The notes under the pieces: model-generated
Told to the model about the DNA's origin: nothing
The model's database searches: none
What the model saw: the letters and a program-made list of their open reading frames with translations, nothing else
NCBI GenBank assembly: GCA_001794025.1
Contig: MGJA01000012.1
Coordinates: 72,455 to 104,782, forward strand
DNA: 32,328 bases
Reading direction: 5' to 3'
Origin: Candidatus Yanofskybacteria bacterium RIFCSPHIGHO2_01_FULL_41_21
GTDB taxonomy: Bacteria; Patescibacteriota; Minisyncoccia; 2-02-FULL-40-12; GWA2-44-9
Made by a program: the position numbers and the translations under genes
In this document: positions 927-25,959 of the stretch, in pieces
Layout: each line of letters starts with the position of its first letter
Position numbering within the stretch: position 1 is the stretch's first letter

Positions 927-2345
927 CTATTCGGCTCCGGCCAAAAATCCTAGTGCTATAAAAAATATTAATCGTCCCGACTGAATGGTCCATAAGTAAT
1001 GGTCAAACAGGCCAAAAATTAATATTGAAACAATAACGAGGGCAAACGGGATATGATACAACTTTTTGATTCGCCAGCCGGCGAACAAGCGGTGATAAAA
1101 ATCATAGAGTAAAAATGCCAGAAAGAGTAAAAACAAGGCAATGCCAACAATCCCCGTCTCCGAATAAATCAGTAAATAAATATTATGGACGGGTTGATAT
1201 ATTTCCCGACTAAGATGTAAGTCCTGGGTCATCAGCCACGGCACAAAATTACCCATTCCCAAACCGAATAAATTTTGTCCGCTCGCTAACGATTCTTGAT
1301 TGTATAAAATCCGGAGTTGAACCGCCTCGTCATCAGAAGAAATAACCGACCGATTTATCACATACGGCCAATATACGACAATAAAAGTAACTGCAATACA
1401 AATTGTCGTCAAAAAAATTTTATGAGAGTTAGTGGCCCATATTCTTTTCCCCAGTAGCGGAAGGGGTCCCAGCGAAGAGCCGTCGGTCCGCCAACTGGCG
1501 GATGGTTTCCTGGGTCTGGGGGAAAGATTATGGGTCACTAAAAAAAACATCAGTATAAAACTTACGCCCCAAAGTCCGACAATCACTCGCGAAAAAGTCA
1601 GGAAGAAAGCCCAAAGAATTACCACATAAAAAACATGCCACCACCACTTTTTATGATATATCAAAGAATCATAAAAAATAAAGATAGCGATAAACAGAAA
1701 CAACGCCAATACGTTTGAATGGGGTGTCGTGCCATAAACACGGATAATCTTTGTGCCATCAACAAGAAAAGCCGCAATTCCGCTAAAAGCCGGCGCCAGC
1801 GGACTCTCGCTTAAATACTTCAAACCCAAACTCCCCTGCGTCATAAATTGCGCGATAGCGATGATTGATTGGAATGTGGCGCTGATAATAACCACCTCAA
1901 AAACATGTCGTAATTCAAAACGTTTCAGCGCGTAATTTTTAACATAAAAATAAAGCACGACACCTTCAACTAATTTGAACCATTGAAATACCGCTGTCTG
2001 AACATCAAGCGCCCCCCAAATAGAAAAACCAGCGACAATAACAAAAATTATAAGAAAAGTATCAGCAGACAAATTATGGTCTTTAACCCAGTAGCGGAAG
2101 GGGTCCCAGCGAAGCTGGGGAAACCGACGGGACTGGTTTCCCGGGTCTGGGTTCAAGACCATAATTCGCCTGCTGTTGAAAGCCCAAAATACTACGAGCA
2201 TTATAAAAATAATATCGGTGGCGTAGATGTAGATGGAAGTCCATTCAATAAAATTGAACGGTTCAAACCAAAAAATGTGCCGAGAGGAAATCGGAATTGA
2301 AAAAATAAAAATATAGAACACCCAATTTTCCAGTTTATTAAACAT
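927..2345 (-). CDS. O-antigen ligase/polymerase-like membrane protein with inserted repeats
   Basis: A 472-residue polytopic membrane protein with about ten hydrophobic segments. The C-terminal half carries V-H-N-I-Y-L...E-T-G-I-V-G (from residue 386), the signature of the Wzy_C/O-antigen ligase family, which joins or polymerises undecaprenyl-linked glycans outside the membrane. I chose ATG 2343-2345, which has AAGGGG about 11 nt upstream; an in-frame GTG at 2355-2357 overlaps that SD. Three palindromic repeats sit inside the frame without breaking it: residues about 57-94 (element 2063-2175), 270-305 (element 1431-1539) and 223-233 (hairpin 1651-1674). The first two encode Pro/Arg/Trp-rich hydrophilic loops between membrane segments. 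It may be a glycan polymerase or a protein O-glycosylation ligase; substrate unknown. Confidence 0.8.
   Translation of the reverse strand: MFNKLENWVFYIFIFSIPISSRHIFWFEPFNFIEWTSIYIYATDIIFIMLVVFWAFNSRRIMVLNPDPGNQSRRFPQLRWDPFRYWVKDHNLSADTFLIIFVIVAGFSIWGALDVQTAVFQWFKLVEGVVLYFYVKNYALKRFELRHVFEVVIISATFQSIIAIAQFMTQGSLGLKYLSESPLAPAFSGIAAFLVDGTKIIRVYGTTPHSNVLALFLFIAIFIFYDSLIYHKKWWWHVFYVVILWAFFLTFSRVIVGLWGVSFILMFFLVTHNLSPRPRKPSASWRTDGSSLGPLPLLGKRIWATNSHKIFLTTICIAVTFIVVYWPYVINRSVISSDDEAVQLRILYNQESLASGQNLFGLGMGNFVPWLMTQDLHLSREIYQPVHNIYLLIYSETGIVGIALFLLFLAFLLYDFYHRLFAGWRIKKLYHIPFALVIVSILIFGLFDHYLWTIQSGRLIFFIALGFLAGAE
1431..1539. repeat. Palindromic element, copy A (in CDS)
   Basis: Arms 1431-1454 and 1516-1539 (24 bp, 3 mismatches) surround a core that begins CCCAGTAGCGGAAGGGGTCC and ends GGGTCTGGG. 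The core matches copies at 2063-2175 and 24730-24838; the arms do not. The apical part differs from the other copies and forms its own TCCGCCA/TGGCGGA-type hairpin. Read on the minus strand it stays open inside the O-antigen-ligase-like gene. Confidence 0.85.
1651..1674. repeat. 24-bp TTATGAT hairpin repeat, copy 1 (in CDS)
   Basis: Arms TTATGAT and ATCATAA with loop atatcaaaga. The same 24 bp occurs exactly at 17964-17987 and 18448-18471. Here it lies within the O-antigen-ligase-like gene and encodes part of F-Y-D-S-L-I-Y-H-K-K. Confidence 0.85.
2063..2175. repeat. Palindromic element, copy B (in CDS)
   Basis: Arms 2063-2091 and 2147-2175 (29 bp, 3 mismatches) contain the locus-specific AATTATGGTCTT. 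The core is nearly identical to copy C at 24730-24838. An inner hairpin GGGAAACC/GGTTTCCC is replaced in copy C by GGGGAACC/GGTTCCCC, a compensatory change. On the minus strand it is read in a frame different from copy A. Confidence 0.88.
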
Positions 2346-2368
2346 ATCCAATTTCACCCCTTCTTTGT

Positions 2369-6105: not shown

Positions 6106-6146
6106 AAATTAGTTTAGATCATCCCACTTTTTCTGGTTTTAGGCAA

Positions 6147-6327
6147 TCCTTCGACAAGCTCAGGACAAGTTCTTTGACTCGCTTTGCTCGCTCACCATAA
6201 ATCCTTCGACGGGGTCGGGACAAGTCTTTCGACTACTTCAACACCGCTCAGGACAAGTCCTTCGGCGGGGTCAGGATAAATCCTTCGACAAGCTCAGGAC
6301 AAGTCCTTCGGCAAGCTTAGGATAAAC
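6147..6327. repeat. Cluster of seven CCTTCGACAAGCTCAGGAC-type repeats
   Basis: Seven degenerate copies of a 23-33 bp unit (best copies CCTTCGACAAGCTCAGGAC followed by aagt or aaat) stand head to tail upstream of the endonuclease gene. Each full copy is a small imperfect palindrome and contains TCGA or a close variant. Further copies are at 7699-7759, and single in-frame copies at 2741-2760 and 20381-20399. The rest of 6106-6426 holds only a GGCTCAA/TTGAGCC hairpin and no gene. Confidence 0.85.
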
Positions 6328-17963: not shown

Positions 17964-17987
17964 TTATGATATATCAAAGAATCATAA
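17964..17987. repeat. 24-bp TTATGAT hairpin repeat, copy 2
   Basis: An exact copy of 1651-1674, in the 64-bp gap between the TrpR-like gene and the nucleotidyltransferase gene. A motif reading TAGTTAATATT on the minus strand adjoins it, as at copy 3. Confidence 0.85.
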
Positions 17988-17992
17988 GTTGG

Positions 17993-18421
17993 TCATTTTT
18001 TCTTTAAATCTTGAAAAATATGGAATAGGAGATGATGTACTGGATATCGACGCCGCAAATTTCCTAAAGGGCTTGAATCGTAATAATCTTTAAAATTTTT
18101 ATGGTTGCTGAATTGTTTTTTTAAACTAGTAATAACTTTTTCATATCCTTTATTTTCATCCTCTAGCCAACGATGAACTCGCATGATTGTATCAGGTCCA
18201 ACTTTCATTTCTTTCATAATTTGATCATACAACTGACCATCCAATAACCGACGAGCAATCATTATTCGTCGACCTATCATTATTCGTTCACTTTCCGTCA
18301 AAACATCTCGTAAAAAATCTTTTATCTCTTGTCTTGAATTCAAAGACCCGACTGCTGTGTAAAGAATATCCAAATACTCTGCTTTATCTTTTTTCTCAAC
18401 ATTTCTAGATTTAACTTTCAT
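17993..18421 (-). CDS. TrpR/YerC-like helix-turn-helix regulator
   Basis: A 142-residue protein of the Trp-repressor superfamily (YerC/YecD branch). The HTH is L-T-E-S-E-R-I-M-I-G-R-R-I-M-I-A-R-R-L-L-D-G-Q-L-Y-D-Q-I, followed by V-G-P-D-T-I-M-R-V-H-R-W-L. YerC-like proteins are small dimeric repressors that usually lack the tryptophan pocket; ligand and regulon are unknown here. The C-terminal 35 residues are basic and aromatic and extend beyond the usual domain. The upstream region contains TTAGTTAAC, resembling half of the E. coli trp operator, next to a copy of the TTATGAT hairpin (18448-18471); another copy lies just after the stop. Autoregulation through that site is a guess. Confidence 0.75.
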   Translation of the reverse strand: MKVKSRNVEKKDKAEYLDILYTAVGSLNSRQEIKDFLRDVLTESERIMIGRRIMIARRLLDGQLYDQIMKEMKVGPDTIMRVHRWLEDENKGYEKVITSLKKQFSNHKNFKDYYDSSPLGNLRRRYPVHHLLFHIFQDLKKK

Positions 18422-18447: not shown

Positions 18448-18471
18448 TTATGATATATCAAAGAATCATAA
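18448..18471. repeat. 24-bp TTATGAT hairpin repeat, copy 3
   Basis: An exact copy of 1651-1674, 26 nt upstream of the TrpR-like start. Flanks extend the stem: the arms here are TTTTATTTTATGAT and its perfect complement (14 bp), while at copy 1 the stem extends differently. Confidence 0.85.
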
Positions 18472-23632: not shown

Positions 23633-24712
23633 CTATTCGCGGGCTATATTGAACACGATTCCCAATCCCGCAAGCAACGCGATCATCGCTGTTCCGCCAT
23701 AGCTGATGAACGGAAGCGGAATACCCGTCAATGGAGCAAGACCGGAGATGGCTGAAATATTAATAAAGGCCTGGGCCATAATCCAAATATTTATTCCACT
23801 CACAAAAAAACGACCGAATGGATCAGCCGTAGATATGGCAATTTGAGTAAGGGTAAGACAAAGAAGGACAAAAAGACCCACGATGGCTAAAGCGCCAACC
23901 AATCCCAATTCTTCGGCAACGACAGCAAAAATTGAATCCCCGACGGGTTCGGGCAAAAATCCTAATTTTTGCGTGCTTTTTCCAAAACCAACACCAAAGA
24001 TACCACCCGAACCTATGGCGATTTTGGCTTGATTCACCTGATATGAAATTCCTCGTGTATCGTTATTTTGATTAACAAAAGAACGTATGCGATTAAAACG
24101 ATATGGCTCAAGCCATATAAGAAGCGCGAGGATTATTAATCCAATACCAACAATGGATCCGATAAGTTTTAAATTGGCCCCGGCCACAAAATACATTCCT
24201 AAAGCGATACAACCAACGACAATCAAAGTACCAATATCCGGTTGAAGTGCCAAAAGAAGACCAACAAACCCCAACACAATAAAAAATGGCGCTGCACCAT
24301 AAAGCCAATGATTGGTTCGTTCATTACGACCATGACCGCTAAACCAAGCTGCTAAATAAATAACGAGAGATAACTTTAGTATTTCGGACGGTTGGAAAAC
24401 AATTCCGCCTATGCTTAACCAACGAATCGCCCCTTTAGCGCCAAAACCAAAATGAGATACAAACACTAGTGTCATTAGAGCCAGGGCACCCAAAAGAATT
24501 AATAATGAAAGTTTCCGCCAAATTTTAAAATCAATTTTAGATAAAATATAGGCGAGTAAAACCCCTGGAGCAATACCGTAAAGCAACTGATGAAAAAAAT
24601 AATAATACGCCGACCCAAATCTTTTTTGCGCTTCCACAATCCCAGCCGAAGACAACACGGCCAAGCCGATAATAATCAAAATTCCCAAAATCCAAAACAG
24701 CCGTTTCTTCAT
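23633..24712 (-). CDS. ftsW: FtsW/RodA-family peptidoglycan glycosyltransferase
   Basis: A 359-residue SEDS protein with ten predicted transmembrane helices. Signatures are G-A-I-R-W-L-S-I-G-G-I-V-F-Q-P-S-E-I-L-K-L, L-L-A-L-Q-P-D-I-G-T (the conserved catalytic Asp loop), and G-I-P-L-P-F-I-S-Y-G-G-T near the C-terminus. SEDS proteins polymerise lipid II into glycan strands with a class B PBP partner. FtsW (division) and RodA (elongation) are hard to separate by eye; I choose FtsW because it follows mraY in the same direction, as in dcw clusters. A palindromic element (24730-24838) lies between it and mraY. No SD. Confidence 0.88.
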   Translation of the reverse strand: MKKRLFWILGILIIIGLAVLSSAGIVEAQKRFGSAYYYFFHQLLYGIAPGVLLAYILSKIDFKIWRKLSLLILLGALALMTLVFVSHFGFGAKGAIRWLSIGGIVFQPSEILKLSLVIYLAAWFSGHGRNERTNHWLYGAAPFFIVLGFVGLLLALQPDIGTLIVVGCIALGMYFVAGANLKLIGSIVGIGLIILALLIWLEPYRFNRIRSFVNQNNDTRGISYQVNQAKIAIGSGGIFGVGFGKSTQKLGFLPEPVGDSIFAVVAEELGLVGALAIVGLFVLLCLTLTQIAISTADPFGRFFVSGINIWIMAQAFINISAISGLAPLTGIPLPFISYGGTAMIALLAGLGIVFNIARE

Positions 24713-24891: not shown

Positions 24892-25959
24892 TTATTTGAA
24901 TGGGGGCAACTTGCTATCAATCAGGAAGAGGATGAGGCCGATGATGGCGCCGATGGCGTTGACCATCCAGAAACGCATGGTGATTTGGGTTTCGGGCCAA
25001 CCCATCGCCTCAAAAGTATGGTGGATCGGTGTGGAAGGAAATATTTTTTTCTTGCGGATTTTTTTAGAAATTGTCTGAAGAATGACCGAGCCCGATTCCA
25101 TTAAAGGGACAATAGCGATAATTGGTAGAAGTAACTCGGTGTTGGTGAGTAAGGCCACCGCCCCAGCCGTGAAACCAAGAGCCATGACACCAGTATCACC
25201 CATAAAAAATTTCGCTGGATAAATATTGAACCAAAGAAACCCAATCAACGCTCCCATAATCGCGCTCATGAAAATAGCGAGGTCTAAACGGCCTTGGTCA
25301 AAAGCAATTGCGGTCAATGCGCCGAATATTGTTAAAAATACACCCCCCGATAAACCATCCAAACCATCGGTCTCATTCATTGAAAACGCTGTCGCGACCA
25401 TGATGAAAATAAAATATGGAACATACCACCAACCAATAAAATATTCGCCCATGAACGGTACGGTAATAGTTCTGATATCAAGTTTAAAATAGAACCACCA
25501 CGCTCCAATCGCCGCCACACCAATAAAGAACAATAAACGTTTACCAAGTTTGAGACCGCCTCGTTTTAAAACACCAATCATATCATCAGCCATACCAACT
25601 ATACCTGCCAAAATTAAAAATCCCAACGGAAGTAATGTCTGACTTCGGGACAGAAAATTAATCCTGTTCCAAACACCATCAACCAAAGAAGCCAACAACC
25701 AACACCCCAGAGTGATAATTGATACCGTCAACCAAATCGGCAAACCACCCATAGTTGGCGTCCCTTCTTTTTTTCTGTGTAAAGCATTAAAGATTGGCGT
25801 GTCTGGACGCTCAATCTGCTTGCCAGGTTTAAATCGGGTAAATAAAACTTTGGTCCAAAAATAGGTGATGATAAGATTTAAAAAGAAAGCCATTGTCGTG
25901 ATGACAAACAGCCGAACGATATTAAAAATATTGAAGCTTTCTAGAGGAGGGGTCAGCAT
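24892..25959 (-). CDS. mraY: Phospho-N-acetylmuramoyl-pentapeptide-transferase MraY
   Basis: A 355-residue polytopic membrane enzyme that transfers phospho-MurNAc-pentapeptide from UDP to undecaprenyl phosphate, making lipid I. Conserved motifs are K-K-E-G-T-P-T-M-G-G, the D-D of G-M-A-D-D-M-I-G, N-E-T-D-G-L-D-G-L-S-G-G, F-M-G-D-T-G, and the H-H of P-I-H-H-T-F-E near the end. The length is typical. ATG 25959 lacks an SD and is preceded by an AT-rich repeat (25961-26000). Downstream of dacA and upstream of ftsW on the same strand, it belongs to a cell-wall gene group. Confidence 0.95.
   Translation of the reverse strand: MLTPPLESFNIFNIVRLFVITTMAFFLNLIITYFWTKVLFTRFKPGKQIERPDTPIFNALHRKKEGTPTMGGLPIWLTVSIITLGCWLLASLVDGVWNRINFLSRSQTLLPLGFLILAGIVGMADDMIGVLKRGGLKLGKRLLFFIGVAAIGAWWFYFKLDIRTITVPFMGEYFIGWWYVPYFIFIMVATAFSMNETDGLDGLSGGVFLTIFGALTAIAFDQGRLDLAIFMSAIMGALIGFLWFNIYPAKFFMGDTGVMALGFTAGAVALLTNTELLLPIIAIVPLMESGSVILQTISKKIRKKKIFPSTPIHHTFEAMGWPETQITMRFWMVNAIGAIIGLILFLIDSKLPPFK

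What the first reader, a model, noticed from the sequence alone, without database searches (positions are those of the whole stretch)
1431..2175. Same element read in two different frames within one protein
In the O-antigen-ligase-like gene the shared segment reads G-P-L-P-L-L-G in copy A but W-D-P-F-R-Y-W in copy B. Both frames are open, and both insertions fall in hydrophilic loops. This is like the Rickettsia palindromic elements, which persist inside proteins in several frames. A third, unrelated hairpin repeat is in the same gene.
Basis: seen in the sequence. Interest (0 to 1): 0.75.

Follow-up and report, generated by a model that had tools for sequence, protein, structure and literature searches.

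The report
Mobile folded palindrome tolerated inside proteins
A short self-folding DNA repeat has spread through the genome of a tiny bacterium and into distant phyla; it lands mostly between genes but sometimes inside them, where it is read through as extra protein in whichever frame it falls, while evolution keeps its folded shape rather than the peptide.

Summary
Copies A (1429-1541) and B (2063-2175) share a sequence read in two frames (GPLPLLG, WDPFRYW) inside one intact O-antigen-ligase-like ORF; homologues from the same genus, family and order lack both insertions.

The shared segment is the head of a larger palindromic element with 25 copies in this genome, three in this window. A 59-110 nt head sits on a long stem whose outer sequence differs from locus to locus.

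The head is nearly invariant from Patescibacteria to Elusimicrobia, Acidobacteria and Aminicenantes. The stem shows strong two-sided covariation, also between orthologous copies. Stem mismatches are G.T rather than A.C on one fixed strand (46:14), so that single strand, as RNA or ssDNA, is what is kept folded.

Inside uvrC, recG, wzy and UvrD-type genes it is read through in at least four frames and both orientations. In orthologous uvrC copies the head's frame shifted while five stem pairs compensated: the fold is kept, not the peptide.

It works like Rickettsia palindromic elements but is not shown to be one, and has no Rfam match. I call it a new variety of mobile coding palindrome. Its mobiliser and the role of its fold are unknown.

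The parts
1429..1541 (+). Copy A of the element (21-nt arms around head 1450-1520), antisense to the host gene; head partly degraded (P2/P3) and carrying the TCCGCCAACTGGCGGA insert
   Evidence: R1 57 bits
2063..2175 (+). Copy B of the element (24-nt arms around head 2087-2151), antisense to the host gene
   Evidence: R1 107 bits
24727..24841 (+). Copy C of the element, intergenic between a mraY-like gene (24892-25959 -) and an ftsW-like gene (23633-24712 -); member of the stem subfamily amplified in this genome
   Evidence: R1 117 bits
927..2357 (-). Host gene, 476-aa O-antigen-ligase-like (Wzy_C) membrane protein carrying copies A and B in frame
1649..1676 (.). Third hairpin TTTTATGATATATCAAAGAATCATAAAA inside the host gene; not an insertion

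Best explanation
The segment is a non-autonomous mobile palindromic element of about 110-160 nt. Its top strand folds into a long P1 stem of variable sequence, an invariant CCCAG/CTGGG clamp, and a junction with a variable hairpin P2 and a conserved hairpin P3. Shown here: the fold, its conservation across phyla, its amplification in this genome, its insertion whole into a gene (uvrC), and open read-through in at least four frames. Inferred: (1) it moves in trans by an unidentified enzyme that recognises the folded + strand (ssDNA or RNA) through the head; (2) insertions survive mainly between genes, and inside genes only where a surface loop tolerates the extra residues in an open frame, so the peptide is a passenger; (3) selection on the folded strand, perhaps helped by template-switch repair of the palindrome, keeps the arms complementary while their sequence drifts.
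For: Covariation on 46 copies: 91.7% of cells paired, 18 of 32 pairs changed on both sides, score 0.376 vs 0.181 shuffled (0/500) and at most 0.193 slid. Orthologous copies: 14 compensated two-sided changes where about 3 two-sided changes of any kind are expected. G.T vs A.C mismatches in the stem 46:14 distinct contexts, p=4e-5, on the head-defined strand whichever way the neighbouring genes run. uvrC: G001/G003 have 3 residues where G000 has 38, which is the whole palindrome. The head frame is +0 in G000 uvrC and +1 in G002 uvrC, with 5 compensated stem pairs. recG: present in G000, in opposite orientation in G002, absent from the 89-93% identical G001. Nine copies share a stem type not seen in G001-G003, so amplification was recent. 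Patchy across phyla: Patescibacteria, Elusimicrobia, Acidobacteria, Aminicenantes; 6 of 45 genomes of the order and 2 of 379 in an even phylum sample.
Against: No transposase or other mobiliser was tied to it: Y1 transposase absent from G000-G003 and reverse transcriptase not correlated with it. No clean target-site duplication was defined. Long retention at orthologous loci (fmt-def, gyrB, polA) with head and stem conserved is more than a purely selfish repeat needs. Whether the G.T excess reflects RNA, ssDNA or an unseen mutational bias is not settled. The compensated-pair counts include some loci two or three times.
Confidence: 0.62

Rival explanations
1. A structured RNA with a host function (regulatory or processing RNA) that has been copied many times; the in-gene copies still work as RNA.
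For: Riboswitch-like architecture with near-invariant junction and P3 loop across phyla. One-strand G.U tolerance. Retention and compensation at orthologous loci, including 5 compensated pairs inside uvrC, where the RNA is sense.
Against: Orientation to neighbouring genes is mixed and wzy copies are antisense. The number of copies varies 5-fold within one genus. No Rfam match. It is not tied to one gene class.
Confidence: 0.22
2. An ordinary palindromic repeat whose arms are kept identical only by template-switch or quasi-palindrome correction; the fold has no function.
For: Arms are near perfect and locus-specific in all contexts and orientations. The mechanism has been proposed for coding palindromes in Nematomorpha mitochondria (PMC6649704).
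Against: It predicts no G.T over A.C excess on one strand (46:14) and does not explain near-invariant unpaired head positions across phyla.
Confidence: 0.12
3. The two wzy copies are chance similarity or native loops of the protein.
For: The loops are variable in length in homologues.
Against: 25 genome copies matching one model. Shuffles never fold as well. Homologues lack the segment.
Confidence: 0.01

Closest known systems
Rickettsia palindromic elements (RPE) and Wolbachia palindromic elements
   Same: Palindromic repeats of 100-150 nt, between genes and in frame inside conserved genes, in solvent-exposed loops; small reduced genomes (PMC10969869, PMC2229807, PMC3767692)
   Different: Different lineage and phyla; an invariant three-way-junction head; arms of locus-specific sequence kept paired by compensation, whereas RPEs are reported to lose repeat identity over time (PMC6649704)
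Bacterial MITEs (ERIC, Correia/NEMIS, RUP)
   Same: Small, non-autonomous, long stem-loop, multicopy, occasional in-frame fusions (PMC2229807)
   Different: No target-site duplication defined and no parent insertion sequence found; the outer arms are locus-specific rather than shared by all copies
GTAG-REP / RAYT-associated repeats
   Same: Palindromic, contains GTAG, multicopy
   Different: GTAG lies inside the head, not at the foot of the hairpin; no Y1 transposase in G000-G003; much larger
Coding palindromes of Nematomorpha mitochondrial genes (PMC6649704)
   Same: Inverted repeats inside coding sequence whose arms are actively kept complementary
   Different: Those are unrelated perfect repeats without a conserved head; this is one sequence family with a conserved head

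Membership tests
Rickettsia palindromic elements | Palindrome of about 100-150 nt repeated in the genome | tested here: met
   25 copies, model span about 113-164 nt
Rickettsia palindromic elements | In-frame insertion inside conserved genes | tested here: met
   wzy x2, uvrC, recG in G000; uvrC and recG in G002; UvrD/PDDEXK genes in G027 and G037
Rickettsia palindromic elements | Occurs in Rickettsiales | tested here: not met
   GTDB-wide exact pattern scan found it only in Patescibacteria, Elusimicrobia, Acidobacteria, Aminicenantes and one record titled only 'bacterium'; a strict pattern, so diverged relatives could be missed
Rickettsia palindromic elements | Sequence similarity to an RPE family | not tested
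   No RPE reference sequences were at hand
Rickettsia palindromic elements | Arms lose identity with age | tested here: not met
   Two-sided compensation between orthologous copies
GTAG-REP / RAYT | GTAG tetranucleotide at the foot of the hairpin | tested here: not met
   GTAG is inside the head, overlapping the clamp CCCAG|TAG
GTAG-REP / RAYT | Y1 transposase encoded in the genome | tested here: not met
   No PF01797 match in G000-G003; positive controls rang
MITE | Target-site duplication | tested here: inconclusive
   Nearest empty sites are too diverged
MITE | Parent insertion sequence with the same ends | not tested
   Only Y1 and RVT_1 families were looked for
Rfam RNA families | Covariance-model match | tested here: not met
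   No match at copies in the window or in seven further loci

The most novel reading that the evidence does not exclude
A bacterial SINE-like element: a mobile folded RNA (or ssDNA) with a conserved protein-binding or catalytic three-way junction, copied across phyla through its folded strand, whose coding-region copies are selected for nucleic-acid shape while the encoded peptide is free to change frame.
Probability: 0.3. Interest if true: 0.85.

Novelty: new variant of a known kind. Interest (0 to 1): 0.62.

Why it matters
It would extend protein-invading palindromes from Rickettsiales to Patescibacteria and show that such an element can be held by its fold rather than its peptide. The uvrC pair, with the frame shifted and the stem compensated, is a natural experiment separating nucleic-acid from protein selection. 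A near-invariant head of about 60 nt shared by four phyla also points to an undescribed recognition partner, which can be looked for directly.

Tried and rejected
Y1 transposase as mobiliser: absent from G000-G003. Reverse transcriptase as mobiliser: present in 32 of 41 relatives regardless of the element. Phage or plasmid carriage: no hits in viral contigs, phages or plasmids. Known RNA family: none. Template switching that copies the host flank as the sole origin of the arms: rejected for uvrC, where the whole palindrome is the insert, though one recG copy (G002) has a stem running into native sequence. Strand mutational bias as cause of the G.T excess: orientation to GC skew is 12:27 in the genus/order set and 9:11 in distant ones, so not consistently on one replication strand. 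Genome-wide stop depletion of the whole element: not found. In one search wrong coordinates were folded; that result is not used. Identifying the organism from L079 was dropped because only 558 bases match before the sequences diverge.

Full report
What was checked. The window lies in a 704-kb genome of 15 contigs. By its same-genus relatives it is a Patescibacterium: contigs identical to same-genus copies carry the titles Yanofskybacteria and Paceibacterota. The gene 927-2357(-) encodes an O-antigen-ligase-like membrane protein (just under the Pfam cut-off). The shared 24-mer CTTCGCTGGGACCCCTTCCGCTAC is read in two phases in copies A and B. Both frames are open, and both insertions lie between hydrophobic segments. 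Homologues in the same genus (64-67% identical), family and order lack both loops.

What it is. The shared segment is the head of a larger element. Each window copy sits at the tip of a long stem and no shuffle folds as well; the same holds for the other copies read, except one Elusimicrobia copy (L081) that has lost its right arm. A covariance model built from 46 copies finds 25 copies in this genome, 5-6 in each of three same-genus genomes and one in each of two others among 45 of the order. An even sample of 379 Patescibacteria gave only this genus. A strict DNA pattern over GTDB genomes also found it in Yanofskybacteria, Taylorbacteria and other Paceibacterota, Elusimicrobia (many copies), an Acidobacterium and an Aminicenantes genome. 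Patchiness over such distances with near-identical heads implies horizontal spread (inference).

Anatomy. Stem P1 (about 20-36 bp in most copies) differs from locus to locus except for its inner part. Inside it comes an invariant clamp CCCAG/CTGGG, then TAGYGGARGGGGN, a variable hairpin P2 on CCC/GGG, and hairpin P3 GGRAACCG-NCGGGAC-TGGTTYCC. The structure is supported well beyond both controls. All 13 P1 pairs counted have two-sided changes. P3 contains an invariant G.U pair. Between orthologous copies 14 pairs changed on both sides and stayed paired, against about 3 two-sided changes of any kind expected if the sides were independent (some loci are compared more than once).

Which strand. 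Mismatches in the stems are G.T 46 times and A.C 14 times, counted as distinct contexts on the strand defined by the head (p = 4e-5). The excess appears whether the neighbouring genes run with or against the element (11:3 and 11:6), and in distant phyla too (16:3). Copies are not consistently on one replication strand. A DNA cruciform would be symmetric, so one single strand, RNA or ssDNA, is what is kept folded. This is the main argument against pure arm-to-arm correction.

Inside genes. In G000 four of 25 copies are in genes: wzy twice, uvrC and recG. Others are uvrC and recG of G002 and UvrD/PDDEXK genes of G027 and G037. In uvrC the whole palindrome is the insert: 38 residues where G001 and G003 have three. 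Reading frames relative to the head are -0, -1, +0 and +1. The uvrC copies of G000 and G002 are at the same site and read in different frames, yet five stem pairs are compensated. Fold, not peptide, is what persists. In recG the two genomes carry the element in opposite orientation in the same loop, while G001, 89-93% identical, has none. Heads are open in somewhat more frames than dinucleotide shuffles (4.5 vs 3.9 of six). With the arms, the number of open frames equals that of flanking DNA. So in-gene copies look like the tolerated minority of insertions, not a class tuned for coding.

Mobility. Nine copies in G000 share one stem type and some flanking sequence, and this type was not seen in G001-G003; this is recent amplification. 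No mobiliser was identified: no Y1 transposase in the genus genomes, reverse transcriptases are general in the order, and no phage, plasmid or viral contig match was found.

Mechanism. My best account is a non-autonomous mobile palindrome recognised through the folded + strand, with its insertions filtered by selection and its peptide a passenger (0.62). A host-functional RNA spread by copying is the main rival (0.22), since several copies are old and conserved. Template-switch upkeep may contribute, but alone it does not explain the wobble asymmetry or the invariant unpaired positions.

Relation to known elements. Functionally it resembles Rickettsia and Wolbachia palindromic elements (PMC10969869, PMC2229807, PMC3767692, PMC4224334). 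Membership is not shown: different lineages, sequence similarity untested, and maintenance of the arms contrasts with the reported decay of RPE arms (PMC6649704). It is not in Rfam. Seven literature searches found no description, within an open-access library only.

Limits. MAG assemblies, no transcript or protein data, no exact empty site, only three same-genus genomes, and E-values of the home-made model are rough.

Noticed in passing
L023:1320-1460 (uvrC of the own genome); L134-L153: A second, unrelated hairpin family (ATCCCGTTAGAAG..GAGTCCGAAGGACCTTGGCGAG..CTTCTAACGGGAT, peptide like VRSHARAKGTSPKDLGEDTSNG) with the same design: conserved head, stem that varies in matched fashion. Seven other matches in G000, several in frame inside genes of related genomes.
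   Followed up: partly
L135, L136, L137, L138, L139, L143, L145: Seven copies of this second family end exactly at the ATG of a 160-360-codon ORF in the same orientation (..ACGGGATG), so some may be leader hairpins or insertions at start codons.
   Followed up: partly
window 1653-1672, 17966-17985, 18450-18469: Exact hairpin ATGATATATCAAAGAATCAT occurs on both sides of a Trp-repressor-family gene (17993-18421 -) and inside wzy; perhaps the operator of that repressor.
   Followed up: partly
L009/L041 (holB-murG), L027/L046 (lemA-htpX), recG of G000/G002: The main element lies in the same spacer or loop in two species but in opposite orientation with unrelated stems: repeated targeting or inversion in place.
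   Followed up: no
L014-L047 contexts: Many neighbours or hosts of the element look like DNA replication and repair genes (polA, uvrC, recG, gyrA, gyrB, parAB, ssb, topA/dprA, holB, UvrD); names are mostly my reading of the N-termini and enrichment was not tested.
   Followed up: no
L116 (uvrC of G006), L106 (uvrC of G009): The same UvrC loop holds other insertions: a perfect 15-bp hairpin CAATCTCTCCAGAAG/CTTCTGGAGAGATTG in G006 and a different extra segment in G009.
   Followed up: no
L079: A contig titled Woykebacteria GWB1_45_5 matches the own genome exactly for 558 bases at its end and then diverges: probably an assembly chimera.
   Followed up: partly
window 6145-6318 and 9703-9767/10492-10556: A cluster of 23-nt repeats (AATCCTTCGACAAGCTCAGGACAAG) and a 65-nt direct repeat 82% alike, not examined.
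   Followed up: no
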